Shown: positions 64 to 14,941 of the stretch, one piece after another
Numbering within the stretch: position 1 is the stretch's first letter
How the letters are laid out: every line of letters starts with the position of its first letter
Origin: Gillisia hiemivivida
GTDB taxonomy: Bacteria > Bacteroidota > Bacteroidia > Flavobacteriales > Flavobacteriaceae
Direction: 5' to 3'
Assembly (NCBI RefSeq): GCF_007997295.1
Contig: NZ_VORY01000029.1
Coordinates: 1-34,301, forward strand
DNA length: 34,301 bases
The notes under the pieces: model-generated
What the model saw: only the letters and a program-made list of their open reading frames with translations
Database searches by the model: none
Told to the model about the DNA's origin: nothing
Position numbers and translations under genes: made by a program

Positions 64-136
64 ACCTCTTTTTTTGGCAAATATCGAACTACATTTTCAA
101 TTCACACACAACTTTTGAGATTGATCCAAAATAAAT

Positions 137-2896
137 CTATAGATTATTGAAGGTAATGGATGCATAATACTGCTGACCGATATGACCGGTACCAAAAGCA
201 GTGAAATATTCATTTCCTCCAATATTGGTAGCTCCCAGCTTAAAGGTAGATTTAATAGACGGTACTTTGTAATTTACTTGTGCGTCTACTACAGAAAATG
301 CAGGCACTGTCCCATCAGCAAAAGTCGATTGCCATAAATAGGTATCACTCCATCTATAATTCACATTGAAACCGAAGTTGGTAAATACCTCTGTATTTCC
401 GAAAGAAACCTTCACCTTATGGTTTGGCGTATTAAAGCTGGTTCGAAAATCTGGTGCAGAGGATTGATCGAAATCTTCCTTGGAATAGGTATAATTTCCA
501 TCAAGATCAAAATTCCCAAACACCTTTGTTCCCAGACCAATAGTTGCTCCGTACGACTTCACATCTGCTGAAGAATTGGTGTAAGTTTGGTAGGCCTTGA
601 AATCGCTTTGTTGTAATGCCAACAAAGAAAGAGCATTGTCTCCTACCTCGCCATAAAAAGGCACTAATACGGTTTCATTAGAAATGAAATCCTGGTAGGT
701 ATTGTAATAGGCATTTAAGTCTATGATCACTTTTCCAGTTCTTCCACGGTATCCAACTTCAAAAGCAGTTACTTGTTCTGGCTTCACAATTTCTACATCA
801 GATTTTGCAGGTGCTCCTGTTAACACAGAATTCAAAGAAAAAGAATTTTCATAAGCTGCTCTACCAACAACAGTAGCCGTTGGGCTACCAGTGGCCGCTG
901 CTCCAACTCCGCTTAACGTAAAGGTTCTAACATCTCGATCCAAATTAGATTCGGCAGAACCTACCAATATTGCTCTTCCGGCATCCAGGCCTATAAATAG
1001 ATCCTGAGTAGTTGGATATCTAAATCCTGTTTGCACCGAGGCTCTAAAATTATGAGATCTATCGGCCCCTGCGGTATAACCTGCAGAAAGTCTTGGAGAG
1101 AAGTTTCCATCAAATAATTCGGATTTATCATATCTAATAGATCCTGTTAACTTCAATCTCTCTTCCAATAATTTTTTCTGAATTTGGGTATAAACACCAT
1201 ATTCTGAATATTTAATTGGCCCGTCTGAATCTGTAAATATTGTTCCAGATGAATTTAGCTTATATTGCCTGTATGATCCTCCAACCTGGATATCGGCAAA
1301 ATCTTGAGTAATATGAGAAAAATTATAATTTGCATCTGCATGTCTTAATTGAGTTGCGTCTTGAAATTTAGATCCCGTTGCAAGATTTGGATCACTAATA
1401 ACCTGATTAAAAGCATTCTGAAATTCTACAGTACCCGGAACCAATCTACCTGTGTCTGCAGTTTGTCTCGCAAATCCATGCGCTTGTTCTTCAGGAAGGC
1501 CTTGACCCCTTGCCCCTAAAAATGCTCCTGCATATTGCCCAAACCATTGCTGATCTGATTTCCAAAGTCTATTTATATTGATCGCTGTAAAACGGGTGTC
1601 ATAGGAATCACCGGCATCTTCATCGGTTATATAACCTCTAACAAAGAAATTATCATTCCCGACTTCAATCTTATGTTGTTGCAAAAAGAAATCATTTAAA
1701 GCATATCTATTTGCTCCTTGGTAGATTGTAGAACCAATTCCCACTTTTCCCAAATAGCTTATTTCAAAATCATCGGCAAAAGGTCTATAGTGCAGCGCTG
1801 CATCAAATTTTATACTTTCTGCATTATAATCGGTAAGACTTGGTTCTGCATATCCAGTTCTACTTACATTTTCACTAGGCAATAAGGCTACAGCTTCCGC
1901 GGGAATTAAGCCCGCAGCGGCTAAGGATTGACCAACTCCTCTAATATTTGCGCTAACTTCATCCCCATAAACATTCAACCCATCATAATTAGGGTCGGCT
2001 CTGGTATTTCCAGGACTTAAAACATCTACTTCGCTTACGGCAAACCAATCGGTTCCTTTTAGATAGGAGAAATTAGCTTTAGCTGCAAATTTATCAGAAA
2101 ATTTATGAGCAACTCTTACACCAAGATCATAAACAGGGTTGGTGCCAGCTGCATCTTGCGAGGTTATTCCTTGTTTATAATAAGCACTAATTCCTGGAAA
2201 ATCAAACGGATTCTTACTAGTCATAAATAAGATCCCATTAAAAGCATTTGCTCCATATAGAGCAGAGGATGCTCCAGGAAGTAATTCTATACTATTTACA
2301 TCCAGCTCTGTCATCCCTAGCAAATTACCAAGAACAAAATTCAAGGCGGGAGAGGAATTATCCATTCCGTCTACCAATTGCACGAACCTGGTATTGGCAA
2401 AAGTTGCAAAACCACGTGTATTTACAGATTGAAAGGTTAAACTACTTGTATTCACATCTACCCCTTTAAGGTTTTCAAGTCCCGCATAGAAAGTAGCGGC
2501 AGTGGTATTTTTGATATCCTTAATTCCGAAACGCTCAACGGTAACTGGAGATTCAAAAATCCTTTCTGGAGTTCTAGAAGCCGAAACCACTATCTCGTCT
2601 AAAGCATCTCCTTCTAATAATGTAACGTTTACAACCTGGTTATTGGAAGTAATAGAAACCGACTGCGTTTCATATCCAACATTACTAATTTGTAGATTAA
2701 ATGGAGGGGTTTGGGAGACAGTAAGAATAAAGTCTCCATTAAGATCTGAAACCGTTCCTTGGGAAAGTTCAGGAACCGATATGTTGGCTCCCATAAACGG
2801 GGCATTATTATTATCTACAATTCGTCCCGTAACCGTAGTCTGGGCGTGAGTGATAAGACAACATAAAAAAATAAAAAAAATAAGTGATTTTTTCAT
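137..2896 (-). CDS. TonB-dependent outer-membrane receptor with carboxypeptidase-regulatory-like N-domain
   Basis: Outer-membrane beta-barrel transporter of unknown substrate, powered by TonB/ExbBD. I place the start at the ATG at 2896-2894 because a classic signal peptide begins there (MKKSLIFFIFLCCLITHAQ). A longer reading from 2926 would put ten polar residues in front of it. Mature order: a CarboxypepD_reg-like beta-sandwich (about residues 20-105), a TonB-box-like segment (DEIVVSASRTPERI), a plug domain (about 110-230), then a long barrel ending in an aromatic-rich strand (YYASITFNNL). At 919 residues it has the usual length. No SusD-like partner is adjacent, so it is not an obvious glycan SusCD pair. 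The upstream neighbour is the truncated glmS copy. A 15-bp inverted repeat overlaps the start codon. The family is certain; the substrate cannot be read from the sequence. Confidence 0.93.
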   Translation of the reverse strand: MKKSLIFFIFLCCLITHAQTTVTGRIVDNNNAPFMGANISVPELSQGTVSDLNGDFILTVSQTPPFNLQISNVGYETQSVSITSNNQVVNVTLLEGDALDEIVVSASRTPERIFESPVTVERFGIKDIKNTTAATFYAGLENLKGVDVNTSSLTFQSVNTRGFATFANTRFVQLVDGMDNSSPALNFVLGNLLGMTELDVNSIELLPGASSALYGANAFNGILFMTSKNPFDFPGISAYYKQGITSQDAAGTNPVYDLGVRVAHKFSDKFAAKANFSYLKGTDWFAVSEVDVLSPGNTRADPNYDGLNVYGDEVSANIRGVGQSLAAAGLIPAEAVALLPSENVSRTGYAEPSLTDYNAESIKFDAALHYRPFADDFEISYLGKVGIGSTIYQGANRYALNDFFLQQHKIEVGNDNFFVRGYITDEDAGDSYDTRFTAININRLWKSDQQWFGQYAGAFLGARGQGLPEEQAHGFARQTADTGRLVPGTVEFQNAFNQVISDPNLATGSKFQDATQLRHADANYNFSHITQDFADIQVGGSYRQYKLNSSGTIFTDSDGPIKYSEYGVYTQIQKKLLEERLKLTGSIRYDKSELFDGNFSPRLSAGYTAGADRSHNFRASVQTGFRYPTTQDLFIGLDAGRAILVGSAESNLDRDVRTFTLSGVGAAATGSPTATVVGRAAYENSFSLNSVLTGAPAKSDVEIVKPEQVTAFEVGYRGRTGKVIIDLNAYYNTYQDFISNETVLVPFYGEVGDNALSLLALQQSDFKAYQTYTNSSADVKSYGATIGLGTKVFGNFDLDGNYTYSKEDFDQSSAPDFRTSFNTPNHKVKVSFGNTEVFTNFGFNVNYRWSDTYLWQSTFADGTVPAFSVVDAQVNYKVPSIKSTFKLGATNIGGNEYFTAFGTGHIGQQYYASITFNNL

Positions 2897-2958
2897 ATTC
2901 TGATTTTGAGTTGGTTTACTTAACAATTTAGCTAAATAAACCTCTCAAAATCAGAATA
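2896..2958 (-). promoter_or_regulatory. 15-bp perfect inverted repeat overlapping the receptor start codon
   Basis: Arms at 2944-2958 and 2896-2910 are perfect reverse complements (ctcaaaatcagaata) separated by 33 nt. On the minus-strand mRNA the 3' arm ends with the A of the receptor's ATG, so a transcript starting upstream of 2958 could fold and cover the initiation region. Whether it acts as RNA, as an operator or not at all is unknown. Confidence 0.5.
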
Positions 2959-2962
2959 CAAT

Positions 2963-2986
2963 AAAAACCTATTAACAGGATGTTAA
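2963..2986 (-). terminator. Weak terminator-like hairpin after the truncated glmS copy
   Basis: The 6-bp stem ttaaca/tgttaa (2972-2977 and 2981-2986) with a 3-nt loop is followed on the minus strand by a short U run (A5 at 2963-2967). It lies directly after the stop of the glmS fragment and before the receptor gene. The stem is short and AT-rich, so function is doubtful. Confidence 0.3.
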
Positions 2987-3232
2987 CTATTCGACAGTTA
3001 CTGATTTGGCCAAGTTTCTTGGTTGATCTACATTTTCACCAAGCATCACTGCAATATGATAAGACAGCAGCTGCATTGGAATGGTAGTTAACAAGGGAGT
3101 TAAAGACTCTATGGTATCTGGCACTTCAATTACATAATCTGCAAGTTCCTTTACTTCTGTATCACCTTCTGTAACAATTCCAATAATCTTTCCTTTTCTG
3201 GATTTTATCTCTTATATATTACTTACAACCTT
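2987..3232 (-). pseudogene. glmS: Truncated, divergent second copy of the glmS 3' end (last 82 codons)
   Basis: This stretch encodes residues equivalent to 536-616 of the intact GlmS at 5812-7662 and ends in the same LAKSVTVE tail, but with a TAG stop. Codon-by-codon comparison by eye gives about 38 differences in 246 nt (near 85% identity). Nearly all are synonymous: only Asp-Lys to Gly-Glu before NVDQPRNL, and one Gln codon turned to TAA at about 3212-3214. Homology stops abruptly at 3232/3233, where the intact copy continues and this one becomes unrelated AT-rich DNA. There is no start codon, so it cannot make GlmS. The pattern indicates a glmS tail that diverged under selection and became a by-stander at an insertion boundary. 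Confidence 0.92.
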
Positions 3233-3579
3233 ACATCCACCATAATTAAAATATAATTTAATTCGAAAAATTTTATGCTTCGAATGATTTTTTTAAGAAA
3301 AATTCTATAAATAAATAAATAGATAAAATTGCTAGTAGCCCTAAAACATAAACCTTATGCCTATTGAAATATATGATTTATCAATTAATATGTTAAATTA
3401 ATAAATAGGCTAACAAGGGATGGGGTATGATTAATCTCACCTTTTAACAAAAATTTTGGGTTTAATGATGGCTTAATCCCGCCAAGGTCGAACTATGTGA
3501 AAATGAAAAACGACATTAAATAATAGAGTAATCGTGTTCTATAATCAAAAAAATAGAAACTAATCAAAATTATATAAAA
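3233..3579. other. AT-rich left part of the island, no gene seen
   Basis: No open frame of useful length, no RNA gene and no clear TAnnTTTG promoter were found in these 347 bases. The stretch is very AT-rich and shows no recognisable integrase or transposase remnant. It joins the glmS fragment to the broken lipoprotein gene. Confidence 0.5.
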
Positions 3580-4064
3580 ATGACAAAATCAATTTACTAA
3601 AAACTTTATTTTTATTTAGCTTAATATTCACTGTTATTTCTTGTAGTGATGACAATACTGATAACATTGAAATTAAAGCTGATAATCCTACCTTTACGTT
3701 CTCAAGAGATGTAGAATTATCAACTTTAAAAAATGAAAAATCTGTAAGCTAGGGAATAGGACAAATCACAGTAAGCCTAGACGAATCTACAGAGGAAGTT
3801 GTCGATTATGAGATAAGCCAAAACTTATTAGATGCGGCAGGAATAACACTGGAAGATTTTGATAATCTTTTAGAAGAAGACAAAGAGAGAATCGCCACGA
3901 TGAAAGGTGAACCTTTTGATTGTATCTCAGGTTGCAACTCATCGTTCACTGATAACAATGGAGATAAGATAAGTGGAAGAGGAGCTTGTAAGGGAAACTG
4001 CTGGGTTGATACTGCGGTAAGTGTTCTTGAAGCAGTAGCGACAATTGCTGAAAAACTTACATAG
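3580..4064 (+). pseudogene. Broken lipoprotein gene with a twin CX3C cysteine-rich C-terminus
   Basis: The ATG at 3580 runs into TAA after six codons. Adding one A to the AAAA run at 3585-3588 restores a frame that reads a lipoprotein signal (KINLLKTLFLFSLIFTVISC, lipobox VISC), an acidic linker, and then a second lesion, TAG at 3750-3752. Beyond it 103 more residues read cleanly to TAG at 4062-4064. They include an acidic helix-like stretch and a compact segment with two CX3C pairs (CISGC and CKGNC, 17 residues apart) around an EF-hand-like loop (TDNNGDKISG), followed by a hydrophobic helix. A 54-residue peptide could still start at the ATG at 3900. A strong terminator follows. I do not recognise the family. 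Both lesions could be real decay or assembly errors; two in one short gene favour decay. Confidence 0.7.
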
Positions 4065-4083
4065 AGGTACTTTCAAAATTTCT

Positions 4084-4124
4084 AAAGATACAGAGATTGT
4101 AAAACGTCTCTGTATCTTTTTTTT
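4084..4124 (+). terminator. Strong rho-independent terminator after the lipoprotein pseudogene
   Basis: A 13-bp perfect stem (aaagatacagaga at 4084-4096, its complement at 4107-4119) with a 10-nt loop runs into eight T residues (4117-4124). It lies 20 nt after the stop. Its integrity contrasts with the broken gene it serves and marks the lipoprotein as a separate transcription unit. Confidence 0.85.
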
Positions 4125-4213
4125 AGCTTAAGATTTACGAATACAAGTTAAATTTTAACATTCTAGCTATAATAGAATATTTATAATCAGCTCTTATTTG
4201 ATAAGGGACACAG

Positions 4214-4245
4214 ATTGCGAATTTACCCTAAATCTAATATTTTTG
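4214..4245 (+). promoter_or_regulatory. Bacteroidota-type promoter for the 4328 gene
   Basis: ATTG (4214-4217), a 20-nt spacer and TATTTTTG (4238-4245) fit the TTG-N17-23-TAnnTTTG consensus known for Bacteroidota sigma factors. It lies about 80 nt before the ATG at 4328, in the intergenic space after the terminator. Together they suggest the 4328 gene had its own promoter. Confidence 0.5.
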
Positions 4246-4327
4246 AAAACTGTAATAAATGTTAATTTAATTATACTTAATTGGTTTAAGTAAAATAAAA
4301 TCCTCGTACTATTTAGACTCTTATTTA

Positions 4328-5416
4328 ATGAAAAATATATTCTTCTTCTTAAGCTTGCTCCTTACTTTTACAACCTATTGCCAAACGACAAAAAAAGTTT
4401 TAATTGATAGAAATACTCTTGAACCAATAGACGCAGCACACATATATTTATCAAATAAATATAAAACAGGAACTGTCAGCAATGAGGATGGTGTATTTAT
4501 TTTGAAAAAAATAAAGCAAGAGGATACTTTACAGATAACACACCTAAATTATTTTCCCTTAAAATTAAAGTTTTCAGAGTTAGAAAAGGACACTATTAGA
4601 ATGGACCCTATCACTGAGGATCTTTTAGAGGTTACTATTTTTAGCGAATCTGCGGAATCCATTCTAATTAAAACTTTAGACCTACTGGAGGAAAACCACG
4701 CGGTAGAGCCCGTGCTATATCAAGTTTTTATAAGGTCTCTTGAATATGAAAAGGACAAATCCCAACTTCATGTTTTTGGCGAGTACATATTCAATATTTA
4801 TCAAACAAGAAGTCATAATTCAAAATTGCAACTTTCCAATTTCAGGGTAAAACCATTTTCTGAGCTTGGGAAAGAATATTTTAAAAAGATGAGGTTTATG
4901 AGTGCGACTAAAATTCATTCTGACAATATATTCAAGTATAAAGAGGATATATTTAAAGAATGAAAACTGAAAAATTATAATATCTCTTTTAAAGAAAGTG
5001 TACCTGGCTCACAGGATTTGTTTATTGAATGTATAAGTAAAGAGGATGGTTCAAAGTATTTTTTCCGAATTGACAAGAAATCTTATGGAATTAAAAAATA
5101 TATTAGCCAGAGCAGAAGTGGCACAAATAAAAAAGAAATCACTTTCAAAGAAATTGAAGGAAAATATTATCTCGACTACTCAAAATTAGATTTTGTTAGT
5201 TCTTATAGTCCAACTGAAATTACAACTACGGAAGCTGTTTACAATATTGTTGATACAAATAATTTCGATAGTAAGCTTTATAAGCATACTAATATTAATG
5301 TAGAACCAATAAAACGATACGGTCAAGACTGGTCTGATACTTTTTGGGAAGACTATAATTATTTGCCCATTCCAGCATGGACAGAAGATTTAATGAAGGA
5401 AGAAAATGCTAAATAA
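4328..5416 (+). pseudogene. Secreted carboxypeptidase-regulatory-like domain protein, interrupted by one in-frame TGA
   Basis: A signal peptide (MKNIFFFLSLLLTFTTYCQ) is followed by a CarboxypepD_reg-like beta-sandwich (about residues 20-100, with GTVSNEDGVFIL typical of the fold) and a long alpha/beta region without a recognised domain. Translation stops at TGA 4961-4963 after 211 codons. The same frame continues open for 150 more codons to 5416, with no indel needed. A single substitution (for example TGG to TGA) therefore splits a protein of about 362 residues. Proteins of this layout occur widely in Bacteroidota and have no defined role. The 211-residue N-terminal part could still be made and exported. 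It sits between two other damaged genes in the glmS-flanked island. Confidence 0.8.
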
Positions 5417-5513
5417 TTAATTTCTGGATAAAAAGTTTAATTTGCGAAGATCTTATTCATCAACCTACTACTTTAAATAAAAACTAACTCATTTGGAAGT
5501 ATGTTCAAACTGA

Positions 5514-5712
5514 GCTTTAGAAGTTAAATTTAACAAGAACGGTCTTCAGCATTACAAACTCTTAGAAATAATCATATTATTAATAAAGTCCTGGAGTCTG
5601 AGGAAAAGAAAATTATCCAGATTTATGGGAAAGCTCAGTGAAGTTTATTTGGACCGGTTTTCGGGATGATGGATTTGAATTTACCAAAGATGAGATGTTC
5701 AATTTATTCTAA
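5514..5712 (+). pseudogene. Degraded gene remnant, frameshifted at least twice
   Basis: Protein-like segments can be read in successive frames: LEVKFNKNGLQHYKLLE from about 5517, then NNHIINKVLESEEKK, then NYPDLWESSVKFIWTGF and DDGFEFTKDEMFNLF, ending at TAA 5710-5712. The second join needs one extra A in the AAAA run near 5608-5612. The last segment is open for 36 codons (5602-5709). The residue composition looks like a true C-terminus, but I do not recognise the family. There is no start codon in any segment. The alternative is chance open sequence. Confidence 0.4.
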
Positions 5713-5756
5713 TATATTTCTCAACTTTTTAATCAAAGGGATAATATGTTACCAAT

Positions 5757-5789
5757 AAAAAAATCCCTGAAAATTTTCATTTCAGGGAT
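5757..5789 (-). terminator. Rho-independent terminator of the glmS operon
   Basis: A perfect 10-bp stem (atccctgaaa at 5763-5772 and its complement at 5780-5789) with a 7-nt loop is followed on the minus strand by a U run (A run 5757-5763). It lies 22 nt after the glmS stop. No equivalent hairpin follows the glmS fragment at 2987, so this terminator came with the right-hand copy. Confidence 0.88.
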
Positions 5790-5811
5790 CTATATTTTTT
5801 AGATTTAAAAT

Positions 5812-7662
5812 TTATTCTACTGTAACAGACTTCGCTAAATTCCTTGGCTGATCTACATTTTTATCAAGCATAACTGCTATATGATAAGACAATAACTGCA
5901 TTGGAATAGTTGTTAATAAAGGCGTTAAGGATTCAATAGTATCCGGCACTTCAATCACGTAATCTGCAAGTTCCTTCACTTCTGTATCTCCTTCTGTAAC
6001 AATACCAATAATCTTACCTTTTCTAGATTTTATCTCTTGAATATTGCTTACAACCTTATCGTAATGCCCCATTTTAGTAGCTATTACTACAACGGGCATT
6101 TGTTCATCAATTAAAGCGATAGGTCCGTGTTTCATTTCGGCTGCAGGGTATCCTTCTGCATGAATATAAGAGATCTCTTTTAACTTTAAAGCGCCTTCTA
6201 AAGCAACTGGGAAATTATATCCTCTTCCTAAGTAAAGACAGTTAGAAACATCTTTATATTTGAAAGCGATCTCCTTAATGTGCTCATTCGTAGTCTCTAA
6301 AACCTTCGCGATCTTAGCAGGAATAGCTTCCAATTGCTGTAAATGATGTCTAAAATCTGAATCAGAAATCGTACCTCTATATTTAGCTAATTTTAAAGCC
6401 ATTAAAGTAAGCACAGTGATTTGAGTGGTAAAGGCTTTTGTTGAAGCAACCCCTATTTCTGGACCCGCATGTGTATATGCTCCTGCATGAGTTTCTCTAG
6501 ATATTGAGGAACCTACAACATTACAAACTCCAAACACAAACGCTCCCTTTTCTTTAGCAAGTTTTATAGCAGCCATAGTATCTGCTGTTTCACCACTTTG
6601 CGAAATCGCGATCACTACGTCATTTTCATAAATAACTGGATTCCTATATCTAAATTCTGAAGCATATTCCACTTCTACAGGAATTCTAGCAAGATCTTCG
6701 AAAATATATTCTGCAACCAAACCTGCATGCCAAGAAGTTCCACATGCAACAATCAAAATTCTTTTAGCTTTTGCAATGCGCTCGATATTATCGTCTACTC
6801 CAGCCATTCTAATAATGCCTTCATCTACCAACATTCGCCCTCTATAAGTGTCTGTTATAGCGCTAGGCTGCTCATAGATTTCTTTCAGCATAAAGTGATC
6901 ATAACCTCCTTTTTCGATCTGCTCTAAATTCAGTTGCAATTCTTGAACATAAGGATCTACTAAAGTATCATCGTGTATTTTTCTAACTTTGATTTCTTTA
7001 CCAAGTCTTACTACCGCCATTTCTCCATCCTCAAGATAAATAGCATTATTGGTGAACTCAATAAATGGTGAAGCATCTGATGCTATAAAGAATTCATTTT
7101 CTCCAATTCCAATTGCTAATGGGCTCCCTAATCTTGCAACAACTAATTCGTTTTGTTTTCTTTTATCAAAAACCGTGATCGCGTATGCTCCGATAGTTTG
7201 ATTCAAAGCTATCTGGACAGCCTTTCCTAACTTCACATCTTCATTGATCATAACATCTTCAATAAGGTTTACCAATACTTCTGTATCTGTATCAGATTGA
7301 AAAGTGTAACCCCTTTTTATTAATTCTTTCTTAAGAGAAGAGTAATTTTCTATAATCCCGTTGTGGATTATCACAAGATTTCCTGAATTAGAATAATGTG
7401 GGTGTGAATTTACATCATTTGGAACACCATGTGTTGCCCAACGTGTATGCCCTATTCCTACATTTCCAGCTTTGGATGTAGTACCGTTAAATTTAGCTTC
7501 TAGGTCAGCTACTTTTCCTTTGGTTTTACAAAGATTTAACTCTTTTCCATCAAACAATGCAATTCCAGCACTATCATAACCTCTATACTCTAATCTATGC
7601 AATCCTTTTATTACTATAGGATAAGCTTCTCTATGCCCTATATAACCTACAATTCCACACAT
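5812..7662 (-). CDS. glmS: Glutamine--fructose-6-phosphate aminotransferase (isomerizing)
   Basis: Makes glucosamine-6-phosphate from fructose-6-phosphate and glutamine, the entry step to UDP-GlcNAc for peptidoglycan and LPS. At 616 residues it is full length. The N-terminal glutaminase domain begins MCGIVGYIGH with Cys2 as nucleophile and contains HTRWATHG. Two SIS isomerase domains follow (about 290-420 and 460-600), with CGTSWHAG and SQSGETADT, and the canonical tail LAKSVTVE. It is the last gene of an operon, 3 nt behind the DUF4270 gene. Its final 82 codons are duplicated in divergent form at 2987-3232, so this 3' end may have been supplied by an incoming element. I saw no glmS ribozyme-like leader, as expected since only 3 nt separate it from the previous gene. 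Confidence 0.97.
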   Translation of the reverse strand: MCGIVGYIGHREAYPIVIKGLHRLEYRGYDSAGIALFDGKELNLCKTKGKVADLEAKFNGTTSKAGNVGIGHTRWATHGVPNDVNSHPHYSNSGNLVIIHNGIIENYSSLKKELIKRGYTFQSDTDTEVLVNLIEDVMINEDVKLGKAVQIALNQTIGAYAITVFDKRKQNELVVARLGSPLAIGIGENEFFIASDASPFIEFTNNAIYLEDGEMAVVRLGKEIKVRKIHDDTLVDPYVQELQLNLEQIEKGGYDHFMLKEIYEQPSAITDTYRGRMLVDEGIIRMAGVDDNIERIAKAKRILIVACGTSWHAGLVAEYIFEDLARIPVEVEYASEFRYRNPVIYENDVVIAISQSGETADTMAAIKLAKEKGAFVFGVCNVVGSSISRETHAGAYTHAGPEIGVASTKAFTTQITVLTLMALKLAKYRGTISDSDFRHHLQQLEAIPAKIAKVLETTNEHIKEIAFKYKDVSNCLYLGRGYNFPVALEGALKLKEISYIHAEGYPAAEMKHGPIALIDEQMPVVVIATKMGHYDKVVSNIQEIKSRKGKIIGIVTEGDTEVKELADYVIEVPDTIESLTPLLTTIPMQLLSYHIAVMLDKNVDQPRNLAKSVTVE

Positions 7663-7665
7663 AAT

Positions 7666-9240
7666 CTAATTGTTTGTTTCTGTATAATAAATATTAAATT
7701 TTAATCTTTTTTCCGCATTAGGAGATAAGTTTCCATGCAACACAGTTCCTTCAGGAGAAATAACAGCTGCACTTGGAACTCTTGAAATACTGTCTATCGG
7801 AGTTTTTAAAGCAGAATTTCTTACCAAATTAATGTTTTGAGTAACTACTAGACCCAAGTTTACATTATCGAAGTCGTTATTTAAAACATTCTTTACATGC
7901 TCGGTTATTCTAATTTTATAACTAATTCCTGCGCCAGTTTCATCTCTTTCTAACCTACTTGAATGTGAAATGAGAGAATTTAAAGGGCTTTCATTGTTTA
8001 TACTAGGATCTATTAGATAATCGAATAATTGCTCATTGGTTTTCAAATTGTATAAGTAAATTCTTTCTGGCTCAGCTTCAGCACCTGGAGCTCTATCCTG
8101 ATTTACAAAAAAGGTCAAGTTCGCTTCATTAATCAACCAGTTATTGGCTCTTAATTCCGCTAATTCCGCTTCATCTTCAAACAATTTAATAACCGTAATT
8201 GCTCCTTCTCCACCTTTTAAAAACAAATTCTTAGCTCCAACCTGAGCATTAGTTTCGGCAATTTCTGAAGCTATTCCTGTTGGAAGATCTTGAGAAAATG
8301 CATTTACCGTATTTGGACCAAAATTTAATTTATAAGTAGAAACTTGCCCAACCATTTCTGCAATATCACCATCCCCATCAGAATCTAACGCATCTACAAC
8401 TTGAGAAGTATAATAAATAGTAATTCCCGCTTCTGCGTTAGCGAAATTAAGCAATAGCATATTCCCGCTACCATTTAATGGCTCAGCTTTAAAATAAAGT
8501 CCTCTAATAAAGTTATTGAAATTGTTATTGTTAGAAAGTTCTAAAGAACCTTCTTTATTAATAATGTTCTCTTGAAAGAATTGTACTGGTAAATTGGCCC
8601 TAAGTCTTGGAGTAGCGCGAACAGTATCTAATTCGTTGTCCTTATTGAACTCCCCATGCACAACCTCTTCTTTTGAGGGCAAAAAATTTTCATTCGTATA
8701 CAAAGGAGCACCAACTAAATTATTTTCAAAAACTGGACCTTGATCTGAATAGTATTTTTGAGCTAATGCAAAATCTGCGTCTGGATCAAAATTATTAAGG
8801 AAAAAATTGGATCTGCTAATCGTCAATTTGTAGGGAGCATTACCAAAAAGAGAATCCAATTGATAAATAGGATTTCCATCCTCACCCGCTTCTAAAGCAG
8901 TACTAAAATAAGGAAGTGTTAATACCACACTGTCCACAACAGCTTCTGTTCCAAATTGGGGATTAGTACTAGTTAAAGACAATTGAGTTAAAACACTCGC
9001 AACTTGCTGCCCATAAACAGGCTCATTATAAACTCCTAATTTATTAACAGGAAGTCCATTTGTCTGAACTGGCCCAATCTTTTTGCTATAACCAATTACT
9101 CCAGCCTCATATAAGGGTATGGAATCAAACTGGCCAATAAGCCTACCGCCAATGGAATTAAAATCGTTATCACATGAGGTAAATACTAAAGCCAACAGCA
9201 ATGCTATTGGGACTAGACGTGCTCTTTTCAAAAAAATCAT
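7666..9240 (-). CDS. DUF4270 family lipoprotein
   Basis: A 524-residue predicted lipoprotein. The N-terminus has a basic start, a hydrophobic core and a lipobox (LVFTSC, Cys23), followed by DNDFNSIGG. The body is beta-rich, asparagine- and acid-rich, with repeated VVDSVVLTLPYF-like strands, matching the DUF4270 pattern of Bacteroidota cell-envelope proteins. Function is not established. It lies between the glycogen-synthase-like gene (14-nt gap) and glmS (3-nt gap), an arrangement I recall as common in Flavobacteriaceae. The tight spacing implies one transcript and perhaps a link to envelope sugar metabolism, which is inference. Confidence 0.85.
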   Translation of the reverse strand: MIFLKRARLVPIALLLALVFTSCDNDFNSIGGRLIGQFDSIPLYEAGVIGYSKKIGPVQTNGLPVNKLGVYNEPVYGQQVASVLTQLSLTSTNPQFGTEAVVDSVVLTLPYFSTALEAGEDGNPIYQLDSLFGNAPYKLTISRSNFFLNNFDPDADFALAQKYYSDQGPVFENNLVGAPLYTNENFLPSKEEVVHGEFNKDNELDTVRATPRLRANLPVQFFQENIINKEGSLELSNNNNFNNFIRGLYFKAEPLNGSGNMLLLNFANAEAGITIYYTSQVVDALDSDGDGDIAEMVGQVSTYKLNFGPNTVNAFSQDLPTGIASEIAETNAQVGAKNLFLKGGEGAITVIKLFEDEAELAELRANNWLINEANLTFFVNQDRAPGAEAEPERIYLYNLKTNEQLFDYLIDPSINNESPLNSLISHSSRLERDETGAGISYKIRITEHVKNVLNNDFDNVNLGLVVTQNINLVRNSALKTPIDSISRVPSAAVISPEGTVLHGNLSPNAEKRLKFNIYYTETNN

Positions 9241-9254
9241 TCGGTATAAATTAC

Positions 9255-10067
9255 TTATTGTGATAAAACTTGAGTGTTGTAAAAATCTTGGTATGCAGTA
9301 GAAAATTCTTCCGGAGTTTTATAATCTAAAACCGGTTTTTCTAATTTCTTTAAGTACTTTGATAATTCTGCCGGAATATCATCTCCGCCAATAATTACTG
9401 CATCAGAGTTATCTATTGCAGTTTTCATCAAGTTAACATAAGTTGGTTTTTTCAAATGCTTAACATTATCATTATCCAGCCCATCAAAAAGAATCTTCTT
9501 GTGCATGTTTGTATCTAACGACTCATCGAAACTTTGATTGTACACAGAGGTAACAATCTTTGCGCCAGAAAATAAAGGCTCGTTTCCGTAGTAGTTTCTT
9601 AGATATAGTGGCAACAATGAAGACAGCCAACCATGAACGTGTATTATATCTGGAGACCAGTTCAATTTCTTAACTGTTTCTATTACTCCTTTAGCAAAGA
9701 AAATTGCTCGCTCATCATTATCTGGAAATAAATTTCCTTCCTCATCTGTAAGTGTTGCTTTTCTTTTGAAATAATCCTCGTTATCTATAAAATAAACCTG
9801 CATCCGCTCTTTTGGGATAGATGCAACCTTAATAATTAACGGCATATCCAAATCATCTATCACCAAATTCATCCCAGACAATCTAATCACTTCATGCAAT
9901 TGATGCCTTCTTTCATTGATGTTGCCATAACGCGGCATAAAAATCCTGATTTGTCCTCCTAATCCATTTACCATTCTGGCAGCTTCAAAAGACATAGATG
10001 ATATATCGGTTTCGGGCAAGTAAGGTATAACTTCAGATGATACGTACAATATCCTCTTATCTTTCAT
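9255..10067 (-). CDS. Single-domain glycogen/starch synthase-like protein (GT5 N-terminal domain only)
   Basis: Resembles the N-terminal Rossmann domain of GlgA-type synthases (KRILYVSSEV, MPRYG, PDIIHVHGW, NDERAIFFAKGVIE), but ends at 270 residues, where family members usually have about 475. The C-terminal GT-B domain with its conserved Arg, Lys and Glu is absent. The ADP-glucose-binding K-x-G-G-L loop near the N-terminus is replaced by PETDISS. Catalysis as a glycogen synthase is therefore unlikely; a binding or regulatory role is possible. I choose the ATG at 10067-10065 (MKDKRILY) rather than 10097, because a TAATTTTG promoter element at 10106-10099 would put transcription start near or after the upstream ATG. 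First gene of the operon with DUF4270 and glmS, divergent from panC. Confidence 0.85.
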   Translation of the reverse strand: MKDKRILYVSSEVIPYLPETDISSMSFEAARMVNGLGGQIRIFMPRYGNINERRHQLHEVIRLSGMNLVIDDLDMPLIIKVASIPKERMQVYFIDNEDYFKRKATLTDEEGNLFPDNDERAIFFAKGVIETVKKLNWSPDIIHVHGWLSSLLPLYLRNYYGNEPLFSGAKIVTSVYNQSFDESLDTNMHKKILFDGLDNDNVKHLKKPTYVNLMKTAIDNSDAVIIGGDDIPAELSKYLKKLEKPVLDYKTPEEFSTAYQDFYNTQVLSQ

Positions 10068-10098
10068 AAATATTTTGCTTTTGCGAATAAAAAACACG

Positions 10099-10106
10099 CA
10101 AAATTA
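10099..10106 (-). promoter_or_regulatory. -7 element (TAATTTTG) for the glycogen-synthase-like/DUF4270/glmS operon
   Basis: TAATTTTG on the minus strand fits TAnnTTTG. No convincing TTTG lies 17-23 nt upstream, so the match is partial. Its place supports the internal start at 10067 for the first gene. Confidence 0.35.
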
Positions 10107-10137
10107 CAAAATTTTATGCAGTTTGCCCGTAATATAT

Positions 10138-10145
10138 TAAGTTTG
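10138..10145 (+). promoter_or_regulatory. -7 element (TAAGTTTG) for panC-panD
   Basis: TAAGTTTG fits TAnnTTTG and ends 23 nt before the panC ATG. The upstream -33 motif is weak. It lies back to back with the divergent operon's element, about 32 nt apart. Confidence 0.4.
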
Positions 10146-10168
10146 CACGCTGTTAATTTTATAAAAAA

Positions 10169-11020
10169 ATGCAGATTATCAAAGAGAAAGCACCCTTAAG
10201 AGAGGTTATTTCTAAATTAAAATTAGAAGATTCCTGCATAGGATTCGTGCCCACAATGGGCGCATTGCATAATGGGCACCTGTCTTTAGTTAGACAAGCA
10301 GCTACAGTTTGCGATGTGGTAATCGTGAGTATTTTTATTAATCCCACACAGTTCGATAACGCTACAGATCTAGATAATTATCCAAGAACACTAGATTCTG
10401 ACACTCAAAAATTAAAAGAATTAGGCCTTAACTTGATTATTTTCACTCCAACAGCTGCTGAACTCTATAATGATGAAATTGTATCTGAACATTTTCAATT
10501 TGACGGTTTGGAATTTGAAATGGAGGGGAAATACAGAAACGGACATTTTGACGGAGTTGGGACAGTTGTAAAAGAACTTTTTGAGATCGTACAACCCGAT
10601 AAAGCGTTTTTCGGAGAAAAAGATTACCAGCAACTACAAATAATAAAAAAACTTGTTAAGCACTACCATCTTCCTTTAGAAGTAATAGGCTGTCCTATCT
10701 CCCGAGAAAACAACGGCTTAGCAAGGAGTTCCAGAAACGAACGACTAAGCCCAAAGACTCGACTTGAAGCATCCTTTATACACGAAACGTTATTGAAAGC
10801 TAAAGAAAAATTTGGCACAGAAAGTGCAAATCAGATATCACAATGGGTTGAAAATGAGTTTAAGTCTCACCCATATTTTAAATTAGAATATTTTGAGATT
10901 GCAGATAGTGAAACTTTAAAGCCAATAACAAAAAACCTTGGCAATCAAAAATTTCGAGCATTTATCGCTGTATATTCTGAAAAAATTAGGCTTATAGATA
11001 ACATAGCTTTAAATTATTAA
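10169..11020 (+). CDS. panC: Pantothenate synthetase (pantoate--beta-alanine ligase)
   Basis: Joins pantoate and beta-alanine with ATP to make pantothenate, the coenzyme A precursor, in the cytoplasm. At 283 residues it has the family's length. The nucleotidyltransferase HIGH-type motif is HNGH at residues 34-37, inside PTMGALHNGH. Also visible are FINPTQF, the conserved FFGEKDYQQL, and the KMSKS-like RSSRNERLS. It is followed after 9 nt by panD, which makes the beta-alanine substrate, so the pair supplies one pathway. Panto-ketoacid genes panB and panE are not in the window. Confidence 0.97.
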   Translation: MQIIKEKAPLREVISKLKLEDSCIGFVPTMGALHNGHLSLVRQAATVCDVVIVSIFINPTQFDNATDLDNYPRTLDSDTQKLKELGLNLIIFTPTAAELYNDEIVSEHFQFDGLEFEMEGKYRNGHFDGVGTVVKELFEIVQPDKAFFGEKDYQQLQIIKKLVKHYHLPLEVIGCPISRENNGLARSSRNERLSPKTRLEASFIHETLLKAKEKFGTESANQISQWVENEFKSHPYFKLEYFEIADSETLKPITKNLGNQKFRAFIAVYSEKIRLIDNIALNY

Positions 11021-11029
11021 TAAAATTGT

Positions 11030-11380
11030 ATGTTAATTCACGTAGTAAAATCTAAAATACACCGCGTAAAATGTACCGGCGCCGATCTTAATTATATTGG
11101 AAGCATCACCATAGACCAAGATCTTATGGAAGCTGCTAATATTATTGAAGGTGAAAAAGTTCAAATTGTAAATAATAATAATGGAGAGCGCATAGAAACG
11201 TATGCAATTCCAGGCCCAAGAAATTCTGGCGAGATCACTCTTAACGGTGCCGCGGCAAGAAGAGTTGCCAAAGGGGACATCCTTATTCTTATTACTTATG
11301 CCATAATGGAGCTAGAGGAAGCAAAATCCTTTAAACCTGCTTTGGTTTTCCCAAATGAAGAAAACAATCTTTTAAATTAA
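11030..11380 (+). CDS. panD: Aspartate 1-decarboxylase (pyruvoyl-dependent)
   Basis: Decarboxylates aspartate to beta-alanine for PanC. The 116-residue proenzyme contains the self-cleavage site Gly24-Ser25 in NYIGSITID; Ser25 becomes the pyruvoyl group. The conserved segments [21 protein letters not shown] and [13 protein letters not shown] are intact. It lies 9 nt after panC and 3 nt before the next gene, so the three are probably cotranscribed. No PanM/PanZ-like maturation factor is seen; self-cleavage is usual outside enterics. Confidence 0.97.
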
Positions 11381-11383
11381 TTT

Positions 11384-12349
11384 TTGAAGAAAACCACAAT
11401 CAAATTTTTAAAGATCATACTCCCGCTTTTGCTGGGAGTTTTTTTGATCTGGTTTTCAATCAGAAACTCCACGCCCATAGAAAGGGAAGAACTTTTGGAT
11501 AATATTAAATCTGCGAATCCAATTTTTATCCTGATTTCTATAATTTGTGGTTTGCTATCGCATCTTTCACGAGCTTATAGATGGAAATTTCTTCTCGAGC
11601 CCCTAGGCTACAAACCTAAGTTTTTGAACAGTTTTATGGCTGTTATGGTTGCTTACCTGGCAAATTTCGGGATCCCTAGGTCTGGAGAAGTCCTTAGAGG
11701 TGTCACTATTTCAAGCTATGAAAAAGTCCCTTTTGAAAAAGCTTTTGGAACAATAATTTCAGAAAGAATAGCCGACTTCATTATGCTTTTACTAGTAATT
11801 GCAGCTGCCATGATCTTTCAAACAGAATATCTTCTAGCTTATTTTGAAGAAAATAATATCAATCCGTTTTTTACAATTGCAATCTTACTTGGAATTTTAG
11901 CAGTGGGAGTGTTCGTTTTAAAACTGATTAGAAATTCTAAAATTGGGATCTTCAAAAAGATTAAAAAATTTGCTAAGGGTCTCCTAGAAGGAATGCGAAG
12001 TATCCTAAAAATGAAGCAAAAAGGAGCTTTTATTTTTCACACCCTATTTATTTGGCTAATGTACATTTGTATGTTCTATGCTTTAATATTTACAGTTCCA
12101 GAAACTTCCGGACTTCCTTTTGGAGTGGTATTATTAGCTTTTGTAGTAGGTTCTTTCGCCGTTTCGGCTACTAATGGAGGGATTGGGGTATATCCTATAG
12201 CAATTGGAGCAAGTCTCATGCTTTTTGGGATTAGCAAACAAGGAGGAGAGGCCTTTGGGTGGATAACTTGGGGAACACAAACTTTACTAATTATTATTGT
12301 AGGAGGATTGTCATTTTTGTTTCTTCCTATTTATAATCGTAAAAAATAA
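11384..12349 (+). CDS. UPF0104 / lysylphosphatidylglycerol synthase transmembrane-domain protein
   Basis: A 321-residue integral membrane protein with about eight hydrophobic segments, matching the flippase-like membrane domain of MprF-type proteins (UPF0104). Family signatures include SHLSRAYRWKFLLEPLG, NFGIPRSGEVLRG, ISERIADFIMLLL and ATNGGIGVYPIAIG. It lacks the cytoplasmic aminoacyltransferase domain, so it should not itself make lysyl-phosphatidylglycerol. A lipid-transport role is a family guess. The start appears to be TTG at 11384, 3 nt after the panD stop; no ATG lies nearby upstream in frame. Its placement directly behind panD suggests cotranscription without an obvious functional link. 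Confidence 0.85.
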   Translation: MKKTTIKFLKIILPLLLGVFLIWFSIRNSTPIEREELLDNIKSANPIFILISIICGLLSHLSRAYRWKFLLEPLGYKPKFLNSFMAVMVAYLANFGIPRSGEVLRGVTISSYEKVPFEKAFGTIISERIADFIMLLLVIAAAMIFQTEYLLAYFEENNINPFFTIAILLGILAVGVFVLKLIRNSKIGIFKKIKKFAKGLLEGMRSILKMKQKGAFIFHTLFIWLMYICMFYALIFTVPETSGLPFGVVLLAFVVGSFAVSATNGGIGVYPIAIGASLMLFGISKQGGEAFGWITWGTQTLLIIIVGGLSFLFLPIYNRKK

Positions 12350-12386
12350 AAAACCTATATTGTGCATGACAATTAAAACTTGACCT

Positions 12387-13535
12387 ATGTACAAAAAATT
12401 ACTTTTAATCTGTCTGTTTATTGCCCCTAACCTGTTTACAGCACAAACTATTTACAAATCTTTAAAATCCTCAAAACTAGGCGAAGAAAGAGAATTAAAA
12501 ATCCAGCTTCCCCGAAATTACGAGAATAACAAAGAAAAATCCTATCCCGTTCTCATCGTTTTAGATGGAGATTATTTATTTGAACCTGTCGCAGGAAATG
12601 TAGATTTCTATTCATATTGGGAAGATATTCCAGAGATGATTGTTGTAGGAATCAATCAAAGTAACACTAGAAATTCAGATGCTTTTTATGATGACCAACG
12701 TTTTTTACCTTCAGAATCTGGAGCGAAATTCTTTGAATTTATAGGTATGGAATTAATGACCTATTTAGACTCTCAATATCGCACCGCTCCTTTTAGAGTG
12801 ATCATGGGACATGACTACACCTCGAATTTCATTAATTATTATCTTCTAAAGGAAAGTCCGCTTTTTCAAGGCTATATTAATATTAGCCCAGATCTGGCAC
12901 CAGAAATGGCAAATAGAGTTACAGCTGCTTTAACTAAATCTGAAAGTAAGATCTGGTATTATCTTGCCACTGCAGAGGAGGATATTCCTTCCTTAAAAGA
13001 AGATATTTTAAGTTTCGATAATCAACTGAAGAATATCAAAAACGAAAATTTAAAGTATAATTTCGATAATTTCCCAGAAGGGTCTCATTATACATTGGCT
13101 GGAAATGCCATTCCCAAAGCCATAGAGCAGATCTTCGAAGTCTATAGACCTATTTCTATTTTCGACTATAATCGAGTTCTTCTACAAACATCTGTTTCTT
13201 CTTATGATTATTTGGTTGAAAAATATGAGAGCATCCAGACCTTATTTCATGTTAACAAGCAAATCAGATTAAACGATTTTATGGCTGTATACAATGCTAT
13301 AGAAAAAACTGAAAAATGGGAAGAGCTTCATGATCTATCTAAACTTGCAGAAAAGCATTATCCAAAAACTATGCTCGCAACTTATTTTGAAGCTAGATTT
13401 GAGGAAGAAACAGGGAGTCCAAAAAAAGCAATGCGTAGTTACCAAAAAGGCTACGGCCAAGAACCCATTTCTTTTTTAACAACAGATTTTATGCTCGATA
13501 AAGCAGATAAAATCAAGCAAGATTTCGGATATTAA
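12387..13535 (+). CDS. Secreted esterase-like alpha/beta hydrolase with Asp in the nucleophile position
   Basis: A signal peptide (MYKKLLLICLFIAPNLFTAQ) precedes an alpha/beta-hydrolase domain of the esterase D/IroE type (about residues 21-260: LPRNYENNKEKSYPVLIVLDGDYLF, FFEFIGMELMTYLDSQYRTA). The nucleophile elbow, normally G-H-S-x-G-G, reads GHDYTS: residue 143 is Asp (GAC at 12813-12815). The likely catalytic His in EGSHYT is kept. Residues about 280-382 look helical and TPR-like. Without the serine, classic ester hydrolysis is not expected. It could be a binding protein or, as in dehalogenase and epoxide-hydrolase relatives, use Asp as nucleophile. The next gene, radA, starts 41 nt later. 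Confidence 0.83.
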   Translation: MYKKLLLICLFIAPNLFTAQTIYKSLKSSKLGEERELKIQLPRNYENNKEKSYPVLIVLDGDYLFEPVAGNVDFYSYWEDIPEMIVVGINQSNTRNSDAFYDDQRFLPSESGAKFFEFIGMELMTYLDSQYRTAPFRVIMGHDYTSNFINYYLLKESPLFQGYINISPDLAPEMANRVTAALTKSESKIWYYLATAEEDIPSLKEDILSFDNQLKNIKNENLKYNFDNFPEGSHYTLAGNAIPKAIEQIFEVYRPISIFDYNRVLLQTSVSSYDYLVEKYESIQTLFHVNKQIRLNDFMAVYNAIEKTEKWEELHDLSKLAEKHYPKTMLATYFEARFEEETGSPKKAMRSYQKGYGQEPISFLTTDFMLDKADKIKQDFGY

Positions 13536-13576
13536 CCGCTTCTTAGCAAAGATCAAATTTTCATTCCAATTAAATT

Positions 13577-14941
13577 ATGGCAAAGGTAAAAACCACATTT
13601 TATTGTCAGAATTGTGGCACTCAACATTCCAAATGGCAAGGACAATGTTCTGCTTGTAAAGAGTGGAACACGCTGGTGGAAGAAGTGATTCAAACTCCAG
13701 ATAAAATCGATTGGAAATCAACTAATGTCAGGGAAGCGAAAAAGGTTTCTAGACCTCTAAAAATTGCAGAGATCGAAGTTTCTTCAGAAACGAGATTGGA
13801 CACTAATAATTCTGAATTAAATAGAGTTCTAGGTGGAGGAATTGTTCCAGGATCTCTAACCTTATTAGGAGGAGAGCCTGGAATTGGAAAGAGTACTTTA
13901 TTATTACAGATCTCTCTTCATTTAAGCCATAAAACTTTGTATGTCTCCGGAGAAGAAAGTCAGCAACAAATTAAAATGCGGGCAGAACGCATAAACCCAA
14001 ATCCTGCTAATTGTTATATTCTTACGGAAACTAAAACCCAGAATATCTTTAAGCAAATTGAAGCCTTACAGCCTGAAATTGTAATAGTAGATTCCATCCA
14101 AACCTTACATAGCGATTATATAGAAAGTTCTCCTGGTAGTATCTCTCAAGTTCGAGAATGTACTGCAGAATTAATAAAGTTTGCAAAAGAATCAGGGGTG
14201 CCTGTAATTTTGATCGGACATATTACCAAGGAAGGAAGTATTGCTGGCCCAAAAGTGTTAGAACACATGGTTGATACCGTTTTACAGTTTGAAGGCGATA
14301 GAAATCATGTGTATAGAATTTTAAGAGCCAATAAAAATAGATTTGGATCTACTCATGAGTTGGGGATTTATGAAATGTTAGGTAGCGGATTAAGAGAAGT
14401 CTCCAATCCTTCTGAAATATTGATCTCCAAAAATGATGAAGGATTAAGTGGAACTGCAATTTCTGCAACCTTAGAGGGCATGCGCCCGCTAATGATAGAA
14501 ATCCAAGCATTGGTAAGCTCAGCGGTTTATGGAACACCACAGCGCTCTACTACGGGCTACAACGCTAAGAGATTAAATATGCTTTTAGCTGTCCTAGAAA
14601 AACGCGCCGGATTTAGATTAGGGGCAAAGGATGTTTTCTTGAATGTTACCGGAGGAATTAGTGTTGATGATCCGGCGATAGATCTTGCTGTTATCGCTGC
14701 TATACTTTCCTCTAATGAGGATATTGCAATCCCTAAAGATATTTGTTTTGCTGCTGAAATTGGTTTAGCAGGAGAAATTAGACCCGTGCCAAGAGCAGAG
14801 CAACGTATTATTGAAGCTGAAAAATTAGGCTTTTCAAGTATTATGATCTCCACACAAACTAAACTTCCTAAAACAAACTATGCTATTAAAATACAGAAAG
14901 TAGCTAAGATTGAAGATGTGGTAAGCTATTTATTTGAATAA
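13577..14941 (+). CDS. radA: DNA repair protein RadA
   Basis: A RecA-like branch-migration ATPase that processes recombination intermediates. At 454 residues it is full length. An N-terminal zinc finger has Cys10, Cys13, Cys24 and Cys27. The Walker A motif is GGEPGIGKSTLL, and the RadA-specific KNRFGS motif follows the ATPase core. The C-terminal third is the Lon-protease-like domain (VFLNVTGGISVDDPAIDLA), without protease function in this family. It sits between the esterase-like gene and an M23 peptidase gene on the same strand. No lesion is seen. Confidence 0.97.
   Translation: MAKVKTTFYCQNCGTQHSKWQGQCSACKEWNTLVEEVIQTPDKIDWKSTNVREAKKVSRPLKIAEIEVSSETRLDTNNSELNRVLGGGIVPGSLTLLGGEPGIGKSTLLLQISLHLSHKTLYVSGEESQQQIKMRAERINPNPANCYILTETKTQNIFKQIEALQPEIVIVDSIQTLHSDYIESSPGSISQVRECTAELIKFAKESGVPVILIGHITKEGSIAGPKVLEHMVDTVLQFEGDRNHVYRILRANKNRFGSTHELGIYEMLGSGLREVSNPSEILISKNDEGLSGTAISATLEGMRPLMIEIQALVSSAVYGTPQRSTTGYNAKRLNMLLAVLEKRAGFRLGAKDVFLNVTGGISVDDPAIDLAVIAAILSSNEDIAIPKDICFAAEIGLAGEIRPVPRAEQRIIEAEKLGFSSIMISTQTKLPKTNYAIKIQKVAKIEDVVSYLFE

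What the first reader, a model, noticed from the sequence alone, without database searches (positions are those of the whole stretch)
2987..6057. A 2.6-kb island bounded by duplicated, divergent glmS 3' ends
The last 82 codons of glmS occur twice in the same orientation: intact at 5812-6057 and as a fragment at 2987-3232, with 2,579 bp of accessory DNA between. Tn7 is the known mobile element that targets the glmS end, but it inserts downstream and does not duplicate it. A copied gene end that restores the host gene is the mark of elements that integrate within a conserved gene and bring a replacement tail. I infer either an unrecognised integrating element that uses glmS as its attachment site and has lost its integrase, or homologous capture of a foreign glmS-linked cassette.
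Basis: partly seen in the sequence, partly recalled or inferred. Interest (0 to 1): 0.75.

Follow-up and report, generated by a model that had tools for sequence, protein, structure and literature searches.

The report
Foreign DNA trapped behind glmS
A bacterium appears to have swapped the end of a cell-wall sugar gene for a relative's version, which brought about 2.6 kb of now-broken passenger genes and left the old gene end behind as a scrap; this is most likely a known kind of recombination accident and not a new mobile element.

Summary
The last 82 codons of glmS occur intact (5812-6057) and as a broken copy (2987-3232), 208 of 246 bases the same. Sister genome G014 has the empty site: glmS runs straight into the TonB receptor. 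The scrap looks native: 89.4% like G014's tail, and joined to native downstream DNA. The working gene's tail looks foreign: identity to G014 falls from 93.0% (nt 226-1332) to 84.2% (nt 1333-1851). The switch (nt 1305-1371) lies well before the scrap's start at nt 1606. This argues against a site-specific integrase. It fits one homologous crossover inside glmS plus one illegitimate join (homology-facilitated illegitimate recombination, HFIR). Trees lean the same way but do not decide. The island holds two pseudogenes, no integrase-sized extra ORF, and no donor was found. A second case exists in another genus: in G377 an 11.4-kb restriction-gene cargo lies between glmS and a 39-codon scrap, again before the TonB receptor. 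An atpD control gave none, but numbers are too small to call glmS a hotspot. Real, mostly explained, modest novelty.

The parts
5812..7662 (-). glmS, intact, 616 aa; inferred mosaic of native 5' part and foreign 3' part
   Evidence: ORF; NCBIfam TIGR01135 glmS equivalog 805.4 bits; mosaic
6331..7662 (-). native part of glmS (gene nt 1-1332)
   Evidence: clade with G014 for gene nt 226-1332 at support 100/99; nt 226-1332 93.0% to G014, but nt 1-225 only 84.0%
6292..6358 (-). inferred homologous crossover zone (gene nt 1305-1371)
   Evidence: best break after codon 444; codons 435-457 within 1.92 log-likelihood units; a break at codon 535, where the scrap begins, is 10.0 units worse (12.5 without the first 75 codons); 0 of 2000 permutations reached the observed chi-square
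5812..6330 (-). foreign-looking 3' part of glmS (gene nt 1333-1851)
   Evidence: 84.2% to G014; no longer grouped with G014 in the best tree, although the AU test does not reject that grouping, p 0.25
5757..5800 (-). terminator-like hairpin after glmS, inferred to have come with the foreign tail
   Evidence: inverted repeat and T run read by eye; the match to G006 extends to window 5757
3233..5811 (.). inserted accessory DNA, 2,579 bp, 29% GC
   Evidence: absent from G014 at this site; GC 0.291 against 0.354 for the window; longest match outside the own genome 106 nt of query in a sample of 397 family genomes that includes the own genome
4328..5416 (+). pseudogene of a protein with a CarboxypepD_reg-like N-terminus (signal peptide by eye); in-frame TGA at 4961-4963
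   Evidence: ORFs 4328-4963 and 5018-5416 in one frame; Pfam PF13715 7.9e-8, 32.7 bits against cut-off 32.2; nearly full-length 26% relative in G190
3582..4064 (+). pseudogene of a small lipoprotein-like protein (by eye); frame shows no ATG and has an in-frame TAG at 3750-3752
   Evidence: frame translation; no Pfam or NCBIfam family at 0.001, no PHROGs family at 0.1, two chance-level Pfam hits at 0.22 and 0.43
3225..3240 (.). inferred illegitimate junction, island to native glmS scrap
   Evidence: ends of the matches to the intact copy and to G014; at most about 3 shared bases at the join, judged by eye
2987..3232 (-). native glmS 3' end left as a pseudogene scrap (82 codons, stop included)
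   Evidence: 220 of 246 bases as in the G014 tail against 207 of 246 for the intact tail
137..2926 (-). TonB-dependent receptor, native downstream neighbour of glmS
   Evidence: Pfam; follows glmS directly in G014, G005, G009 and G013

Best explanation
A piece of DNA from an unsampled relative, holding the last 520 or so bases of its glmS and the 2.6 kb behind it, entered the cell. One side recombined by ordinary homology inside the resident glmS near gene nt 1332. Resident nt 1333-1605 were lost, the donor tail completed the gene, and resident nt 1606-1851 stayed as a scrap in front of the TonB receptor. On this reading no resident base is present twice, so no duplication step is needed. The glmS end serves as the homology anchor, and only joins that leave glmS whole would survive if the gene is essential here (essentiality recalled, not tested). 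The passenger genes later decayed. Shown: repeat, empty site, pseudogenes, scrap nearer to G014 than the intact tail is, switch point that does not coincide with the scrap start. Inferred: that the tail is foreign by transfer, linear donor DNA, single event, order of events, survival filter.
For: G014 is collinear on both sides (93.7% over 5813-14000; 92.2% over 128-3236), and its two matching stretches overlap by 250 bp, the 246-bp repeat plus 4. Scrap against G014 tail 89.4%, intact tail 84.1%. Sites where scrap = G014 and differ from the intact copy: 23; intact = G014 and differ from the scrap: 10; both copies agree against G014: 11. Scrap plus downstream 586 bp is 88.7% to G014 and 78.2-82.4% to G009, G005 and G013. 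Break after codon 444, 0 of 2000 permutations; interval nt 1305-1371, break at the scrap start 10.0 log units worse. Best-tree position of the window glmS changes from sister of G014 (100/99) to next to G009 (77/91). No integrase, transposase or phage family in the two pseudogenes, and no other island ORF of 60 aa or more. HFIR was reported in three naturally competent species, with an insertion coupled to a deletion (PMC3240628, introduction read). The own genome has a ComEC-type gene, and Riemerella, placed in Flavobacteriaceae by the authors, is naturally competent (PMC7965970, start of abstract seen in the listing).
Against: In trees of the 246-nt tail the scrap does not sit with G014 but beside W plus G009 with weak support (65/70). 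AU tests do not reject W with G014 (p 0.25 for nt 1333-1851, p 0.15 for the last 246 nt), scrap with G014 (p 0.34) or W with the scrap (p 0.27). Other patches of the locus are also divergent from G014: glmS nt 1-225 at 84.0%, 83.2% at 7312-7561, 86.8% at 8312-8561, 81.6% at 2378-2627. So a low-identity patch alone is not proof, and the permutation test ignores clustering of rates along the gene. No donor was found. Microhomology at the join is at most about 3 bases, the low end of the 3-10 bp reported. ComEC occurs in 10 of 14 control genomes, and the abstract that reports competence in Riemerella also says Flavobacterium johnsoniae was not competent under the same condition. G014 is a 65% complete draft, so the island could lie elsewhere in it.
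Confidence: 0.7

Rival explanations
1. Remnant of a site-specific integrating element (tyrosine or serine recombinase) that uses the glmS 3' end as attachment site, carries a replacement tail, and has lost its integrase.
For: A foreign replacement tail and a native scrap are what such elements leave (recalled). A second case at the same locus with unrelated cargo exists in G377, and possibly a third in G290.
Against: Foreign sequence starts at nt 1305-1371, the scrap at nt 1606; a break at the scrap start is 10.0 log units worse. Scrap lengths differ: 82 codons here, 39 in G377, at least 55 in G290 where the contig ends. No integrase among proteins scanned and no unscanned ORF of 200 aa or more in either cargo. 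No shared core seen by eye at the scrap starts.
Confidence: 0.1
2. Insertion with long target duplication: the cargo inserted and the cell's own glmS tail was duplicated, later diverging.
For: The outcome looks alike, a long direct repeat around a cargo. The pattern was described for restriction genes in Helicobacter pylori (passages of PMC1643837), and the G377 cargo is restriction genes. In G377 the two tails share 105 of 114 bases, against 90 and 91 of 114 with G210, which would fit a duplication there. For the window the AU test does not reject the two tails as sisters (p 0.27).
Against: In the window only 4 of 246 sites are changes unique to the scrap, while the two copies differ at 38 sites, 33 of them third positions. 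That looks like divergence between two working genes, not decay of a copy.
Confidence: 0.1
3. Assembly join of two strains, or contig error.
For: Draft assembly in 56 contigs; the doubled glmS in G003 of the same genus does look like an assembly fault with runs of N.
Against: The scrap has a nonsense codon and no 5' part, the passenger genes are decayed, contamination is given as 0.67%, and a separate within-contig case exists.
Confidence: 0.05
4. Two separate events: first an insertion that left a native scrap, then an unrelated gene-conversion patch that replaced glmS nt 1333-1851.
For: Divergent patches occur elsewhere in the locus, so recombination with relatives may be common.
Against: Needs an independent source for the first replacement tail and a coincidence of place; one event explains both.
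Confidence: 0.05

Closest known systems
Homology-facilitated illegitimate recombination (HFIR)
   Same: One homologous junction, one illegitimate junction, insertion coupled to a deletion of resident DNA (definition read in the introduction of PMC3240628).
   Different: Inferred from a natural genome, not observed in the laboratory; the non-homologous insert (2.6 kb) is larger and the deletion (about 0.27 kb) smaller than the 1 kb averages quoted there.
Displacement of Vibrio cholerae T6SS effector genes with orphan immunity genes left downstream
   Same: Incoming DNA thought to be anchored by a conserved upstream stretch, old 3' part left behind (passages of PMC5361080).
   Different: Here the anchor is a housekeeping enzyme gene and the leftover is a dead scrap, with no sign of selection for it.
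Insertion with long target duplication (Helicobacter pylori)
   Same: Cargo flanked by a long direct repeat of resident DNA (passages of PMC1643837).
   Different: The two copies here appear to come from different lineages, so the target was not duplicated.
Tn7 and relatives at attTn7
   Same: Same gene end.
   Different: Tn7 inserts after glmS and duplicates only a few bases (recalled); neither island pseudogene matches a transposition family.

Membership tests
HFIR product | one junction homologous, inside shared sequence | tested here: met
   switch of affinity at glmS nt 1305-1371; tree change in the same direction, AU test not significant
HFIR product | other junction illegitimate, short or no homology | tested here: met
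   island end and native glmS share at most about 3 bases at the join, judged by eye from the three sequences printed, G014 standing in for the native sequence
HFIR product | loss of resident DNA between the two junctions | tested here: met
   native nt 1333-1605 not found, scrap starts at nt 1606; rests on the break estimate
HFIR product | RecA-dependent integration of linear DNA | not testable with these tools
   needs an experiment
Site-specific integrative element in a gene end | integrase gene in the element | tested here: not met
   only two ORF groups of 60 aa or more in 3233-5811, neither an integrase by Pfam, NCBIfam or PHROGs; shorter frames listed were not scanned
Site-specific integrative element in a gene end | crossover at one fixed core, equal to the start of the leftover tail | tested here: not met
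   break at nt 1305-1371, scrap start at nt 1606, 10.0 log units; 82 against 39 codons in two cases
Insertion with long target duplication | both repeat copies derive from the resident sequence | tested here: inconclusive
   23 against 10 sites link the scrap, not the intact tail, to G014 and only 4 sites are unique to the scrap, but AU tests on 246 nt reject nothing
Tn7-like transposon | tnsABC genes downstream of glmS | tested here: not met
   the two island pseudogenes match no transposition family and no other ORF of 60 aa or more exists there

The most novel reading that the evidence does not exclude
In Flavobacteriaceae the 3' end of glmS, in front of a TonB receptor and atpD, is a repeatedly used, integrase-free landing site: cargo blocks, defence genes among them, travel with a replacement glmS tail as homology anchor, and each arrival leaves a native tail scrap of different length as a fossil that dates and maps the event.
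Probability: 0.25. Interest if true: 0.5.

Novelty: new member of a known kind. Interest (0 to 1): 0.3.

Why it matters
Leftover gene ends next to an intact gene are a readable trace of how integrase-free cargo, including restriction systems, enters genomes. If scraps of core-gene ends can be surveyed, the share of gene gain owed to this route becomes countable in natural genomes. This case is a clean example with an empty site, but it does not reveal a new element.

Tried and rejected
Search for the island's source. In a sample of 397 family genomes that includes the own one, 52 have a DNA match at E 0.001, the longest outside the own genome 106 nt of query. In the genus (16 genomes, own included) matches outside glmS and the TonB side are under 50 nt. 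None in plasmids or phages. No relative of either half of the larger pseudogene in two genome-contig scans, each by six short peptide patterns. At E 1e-8, 45 of 397 family genomes (own included) match the larger pseudogene, most over the N-terminal domain only; the one nearly full-length match is 26% identical, so it names no donor. The small pseudogene was not searched in other genomes by protein.

Survey of glmS tail copies: 371 of 397 family genomes have a match and 9 have two. Resolved: the window; G377 real, same contig; G290 possible (193 nt, 97.9%, contig edges, different downstream DNA); G355 undecided (divergent tail at a contig end); G150 and G340 contig-edge overlaps of 141 and 53 nt at 100%; G352 two equal-scoring copies near the two ends of one contig; G124 a second full-length gene; G325 a second copy in pieces. 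G003 in the genus looks like an assembly fault with N. The 81-residue query at E 1e-10 misses short or decayed scraps.

Control with the atpD tail: 386 of 397 with a match, 9 with two. 8 of these 9 were checked (G352 was not given): 7 hold a distant second ATPase-like ORF of 472-511 aa at 43-46%, and G269 has two equal-scoring copies near the two ends of its contig. No partial tail. One certain glmS case besides the window against none is suggestive only.

Searches of print: glmS, integration, genomic island, duplicated, Bacteroidetes: 0 papers. glmS, genomic islands, attachment site, integrase, Tn7: 9 papers, 8 listed, none on this by title. glmS, Flavobacteriaceae, horizontal gene transfer, insertion hotspot, 3 of 4 terms: 2 unrelated papers. 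HFIR with restriction-modification and genomic island: 2 papers, neither on this by title. Only open-licence PMC papers are held.

It gave an interval for the break and the G377 tail counts. Mended after it: 208 (not 209) identical bases in register, the low first 225 nt of glmS, and the status of the target-duplication test.
Full report
What is there. The window is contig C22 of a 3.7-Mb draft genome in 56 contigs, placed by the tool in family f1, which by gene content I take to be Flavobacteriaceae (inference). glmS is intact at 5812-7662 on the minus strand (NCBIfam glmS equivalog). Its last 82 codons recur at 2987-3232 in the same orientation: 208 of 246 bases identical in register, 79 of 82 codon positions identical, 33 of 38 differences at third positions, blastn E = 3e-70. 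The copy carries a TAA as its 7th codon and the match stops at its upstream edge, so it is a scrap. Between lie 2,579 bp at 29% GC against 35% for the window.

The island. It holds two decayed genes on the plus strand. One, 4328-5416, has a signal peptide (by eye) and a CarboxypepD_reg-like domain just over the Pfam cut-off and is cut by a TGA at 4961. The other, 3582-4064, is lipoprotein-like by eye, shows no ATG in frame and is cut by a TAG. Neither matches an integrase, transposase or phage family, and no other island ORF of 60 aa or more is listed. Shorter frames were not scanned. A terminator-like hairpin follows glmS (by eye), and the match to G006 covers it.

The empty site. In the sister genome G014 (a 65% complete draft), glmS runs directly into the TonB receptor. 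Window 5813-14000 aligns with its locus at 93.7% and window 128-3236 at 92.2%, and in G014 the two stretches overlap by 250 bp, the repeat plus 4. G005, G009 and G013 have the same glmS-TonB order. In G003, G006 and G007 a gene that I name atpD by eye follows glmS.

Which tail is native. The scrap agrees with the G014 tail at 220 of 246 bases and the intact tail at 207. At 23 sites scrap and G014 agree against the intact copy, at 10 sites intact and G014 agree against the scrap, and at 11 both copies agree against G014. The scrap with its downstream 586 bp is 88.7% like G014 and 78.2-82.4% like the three other genomes compared. Only 4 of 246 sites are unique to the scrap against the 7 other tails compared, and 8 to the intact copy. 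So the scrap is most likely the old resident end and the working gene carries a replacement.

Where the replacement starts. The window glmS is 93.0% like G014 over nt 226-1332 and 84.2% over nt 1333-1851; nt 1333-1605 alone, before the scrap's start, is 84.2%. The first 225 nt are also low, 84.0%. A maximum chi-square scan of third positions puts the break after codon 444, with divergence 0.21 before and 0.43 after; 0 of 2000 permutations reached it. A two-rate likelihood puts the break within codons 435-457 (nt 1305-1371), and a break at codon 535, where the scrap begins, is 10.0 log units worse (12.5 without the first 75 codons). Both treat sites as independent, and other patches of the locus are divergent too. 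Trees lean the same way: sister to G014 at 100/99 for nt 226-1332, next to G009 at 77/91 for nt 1333-1851; the cut between them was taken from the scan. The AU test does not reject W with G014 in the tail (p 0.25). For the last 246 nt no pairing of scrap, intact tail and G014 is rejected (p 0.34, 0.15, 0.27), and the best tree does not place the scrap as sister of G014. The case for a foreign tail thus rests on identity, shared sites and the break estimate together.

Why this argues for HFIR. The replacement starts near nt 1332 and the scrap at nt 1606. An integrase that exchanges strands at one core would make these two points the same (recalled mechanism). Here resident nt 1333-1605 are missing and no resident base need occur twice. 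That is the expected outcome of one homologous crossover and one illegitimate join. HFIR is so described in PMC3240628 (introduction read): homologous recombination at one end, illegitimate at the other, an insertion with a deletion, in most cases 3-10 bp of microhomology. Here the join shows at most about 3 shared bases by eye. The same logic was proposed for effector displacement in Vibrio cholerae (passages of PMC5361080). The own genome has a ComEC-type gene, a weak hint of DNA uptake since 10 of 14 control genomes have one; Riemerella is reported competent but Flavobacterium johnsoniae not (start of an abstract, PMC7965970).

A second case. Among 397 family genomes, 9 have two glmS tail matches. 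One, G377 of another genus, repeats the window's anatomy on one contig: intact glmS, 11.4 kb, a 39-codon scrap (118 aligned nt, 91.5%), a TonB receptor and atpD (both named by eye). Its cargo is HsdM, HsdS, two GmrSD-type proteins, HsdR and an Mrr-type nuclease. No other listed ORF there reaches 200 aa; the small ones were not scanned. Its only congener held, G210, has the empty site. The break test is not possible there, since G210 is only about 80% alike over glmS, and the two G377 tails are closer to each other (105 of 114) than to G210 (90 and 91 of 114), so a true duplication is open in that case. G290 may be a third case, at contig edges with an IS-like stretch behind glmS (a guess by eye). 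The other doubles are contig overlaps, paralogues or undecided (see Tried and rejected). A control with the atpD tail in the same 397 genomes gave 9 doubles, none of the 8 checked being a partial tail. One certain glmS case besides the window, against none, does not establish a hotspot.

Verdict. The stronger one, an unrecognised integrating element, is not supported. What remains open is whether the glmS end is used more often than other core-gene ends.

Noticed in passing
L100 2101-13473 (G377:C9): An 11.4-kb restriction-gene block (HsdM, HsdS, two GmrSD-type, HsdR, Mrr) between glmS and a 39-codon glmS scrap, with the empty site in G210.
   Followed up: partly
window 2888-2910 and 2944-2966: A 23-nt inverted repeat (87%, 33 nt apart) whose one arm covers the likely ATG start of the TonB receptor (by eye); also present in G014. 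Could be an RNA hairpin over the start or a small invertible segment.
   Followed up: no
L107 1-193 and L108 140-332 (G290 C48, C50): glmS tail repeat at two contig edges, 97.9% alike, with different DNA downstream; the sequence after glmS on C50 looks by eye like an insertion-sequence end.
   Followed up: partly
L101 9902-10009 (G355:C6): A glmS tail of 36 codons at a contig end, divergent from the genome's own glmS, upstream of a gene that looks like adenosylhomocysteinase by eye.
   Followed up: partly
window 7312-7561 and 2378-2627: Further patches of low identity to G014 (83.2% and 81.6%) in a locus otherwise mostly 87-99% alike, suggesting more recombination with relatives.
   Followed up: no
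L065 3160-4366 (G003): A second, partial glmS stretch with runs of N beside the intact gene, most likely an assembly fault.
   Followed up: yes
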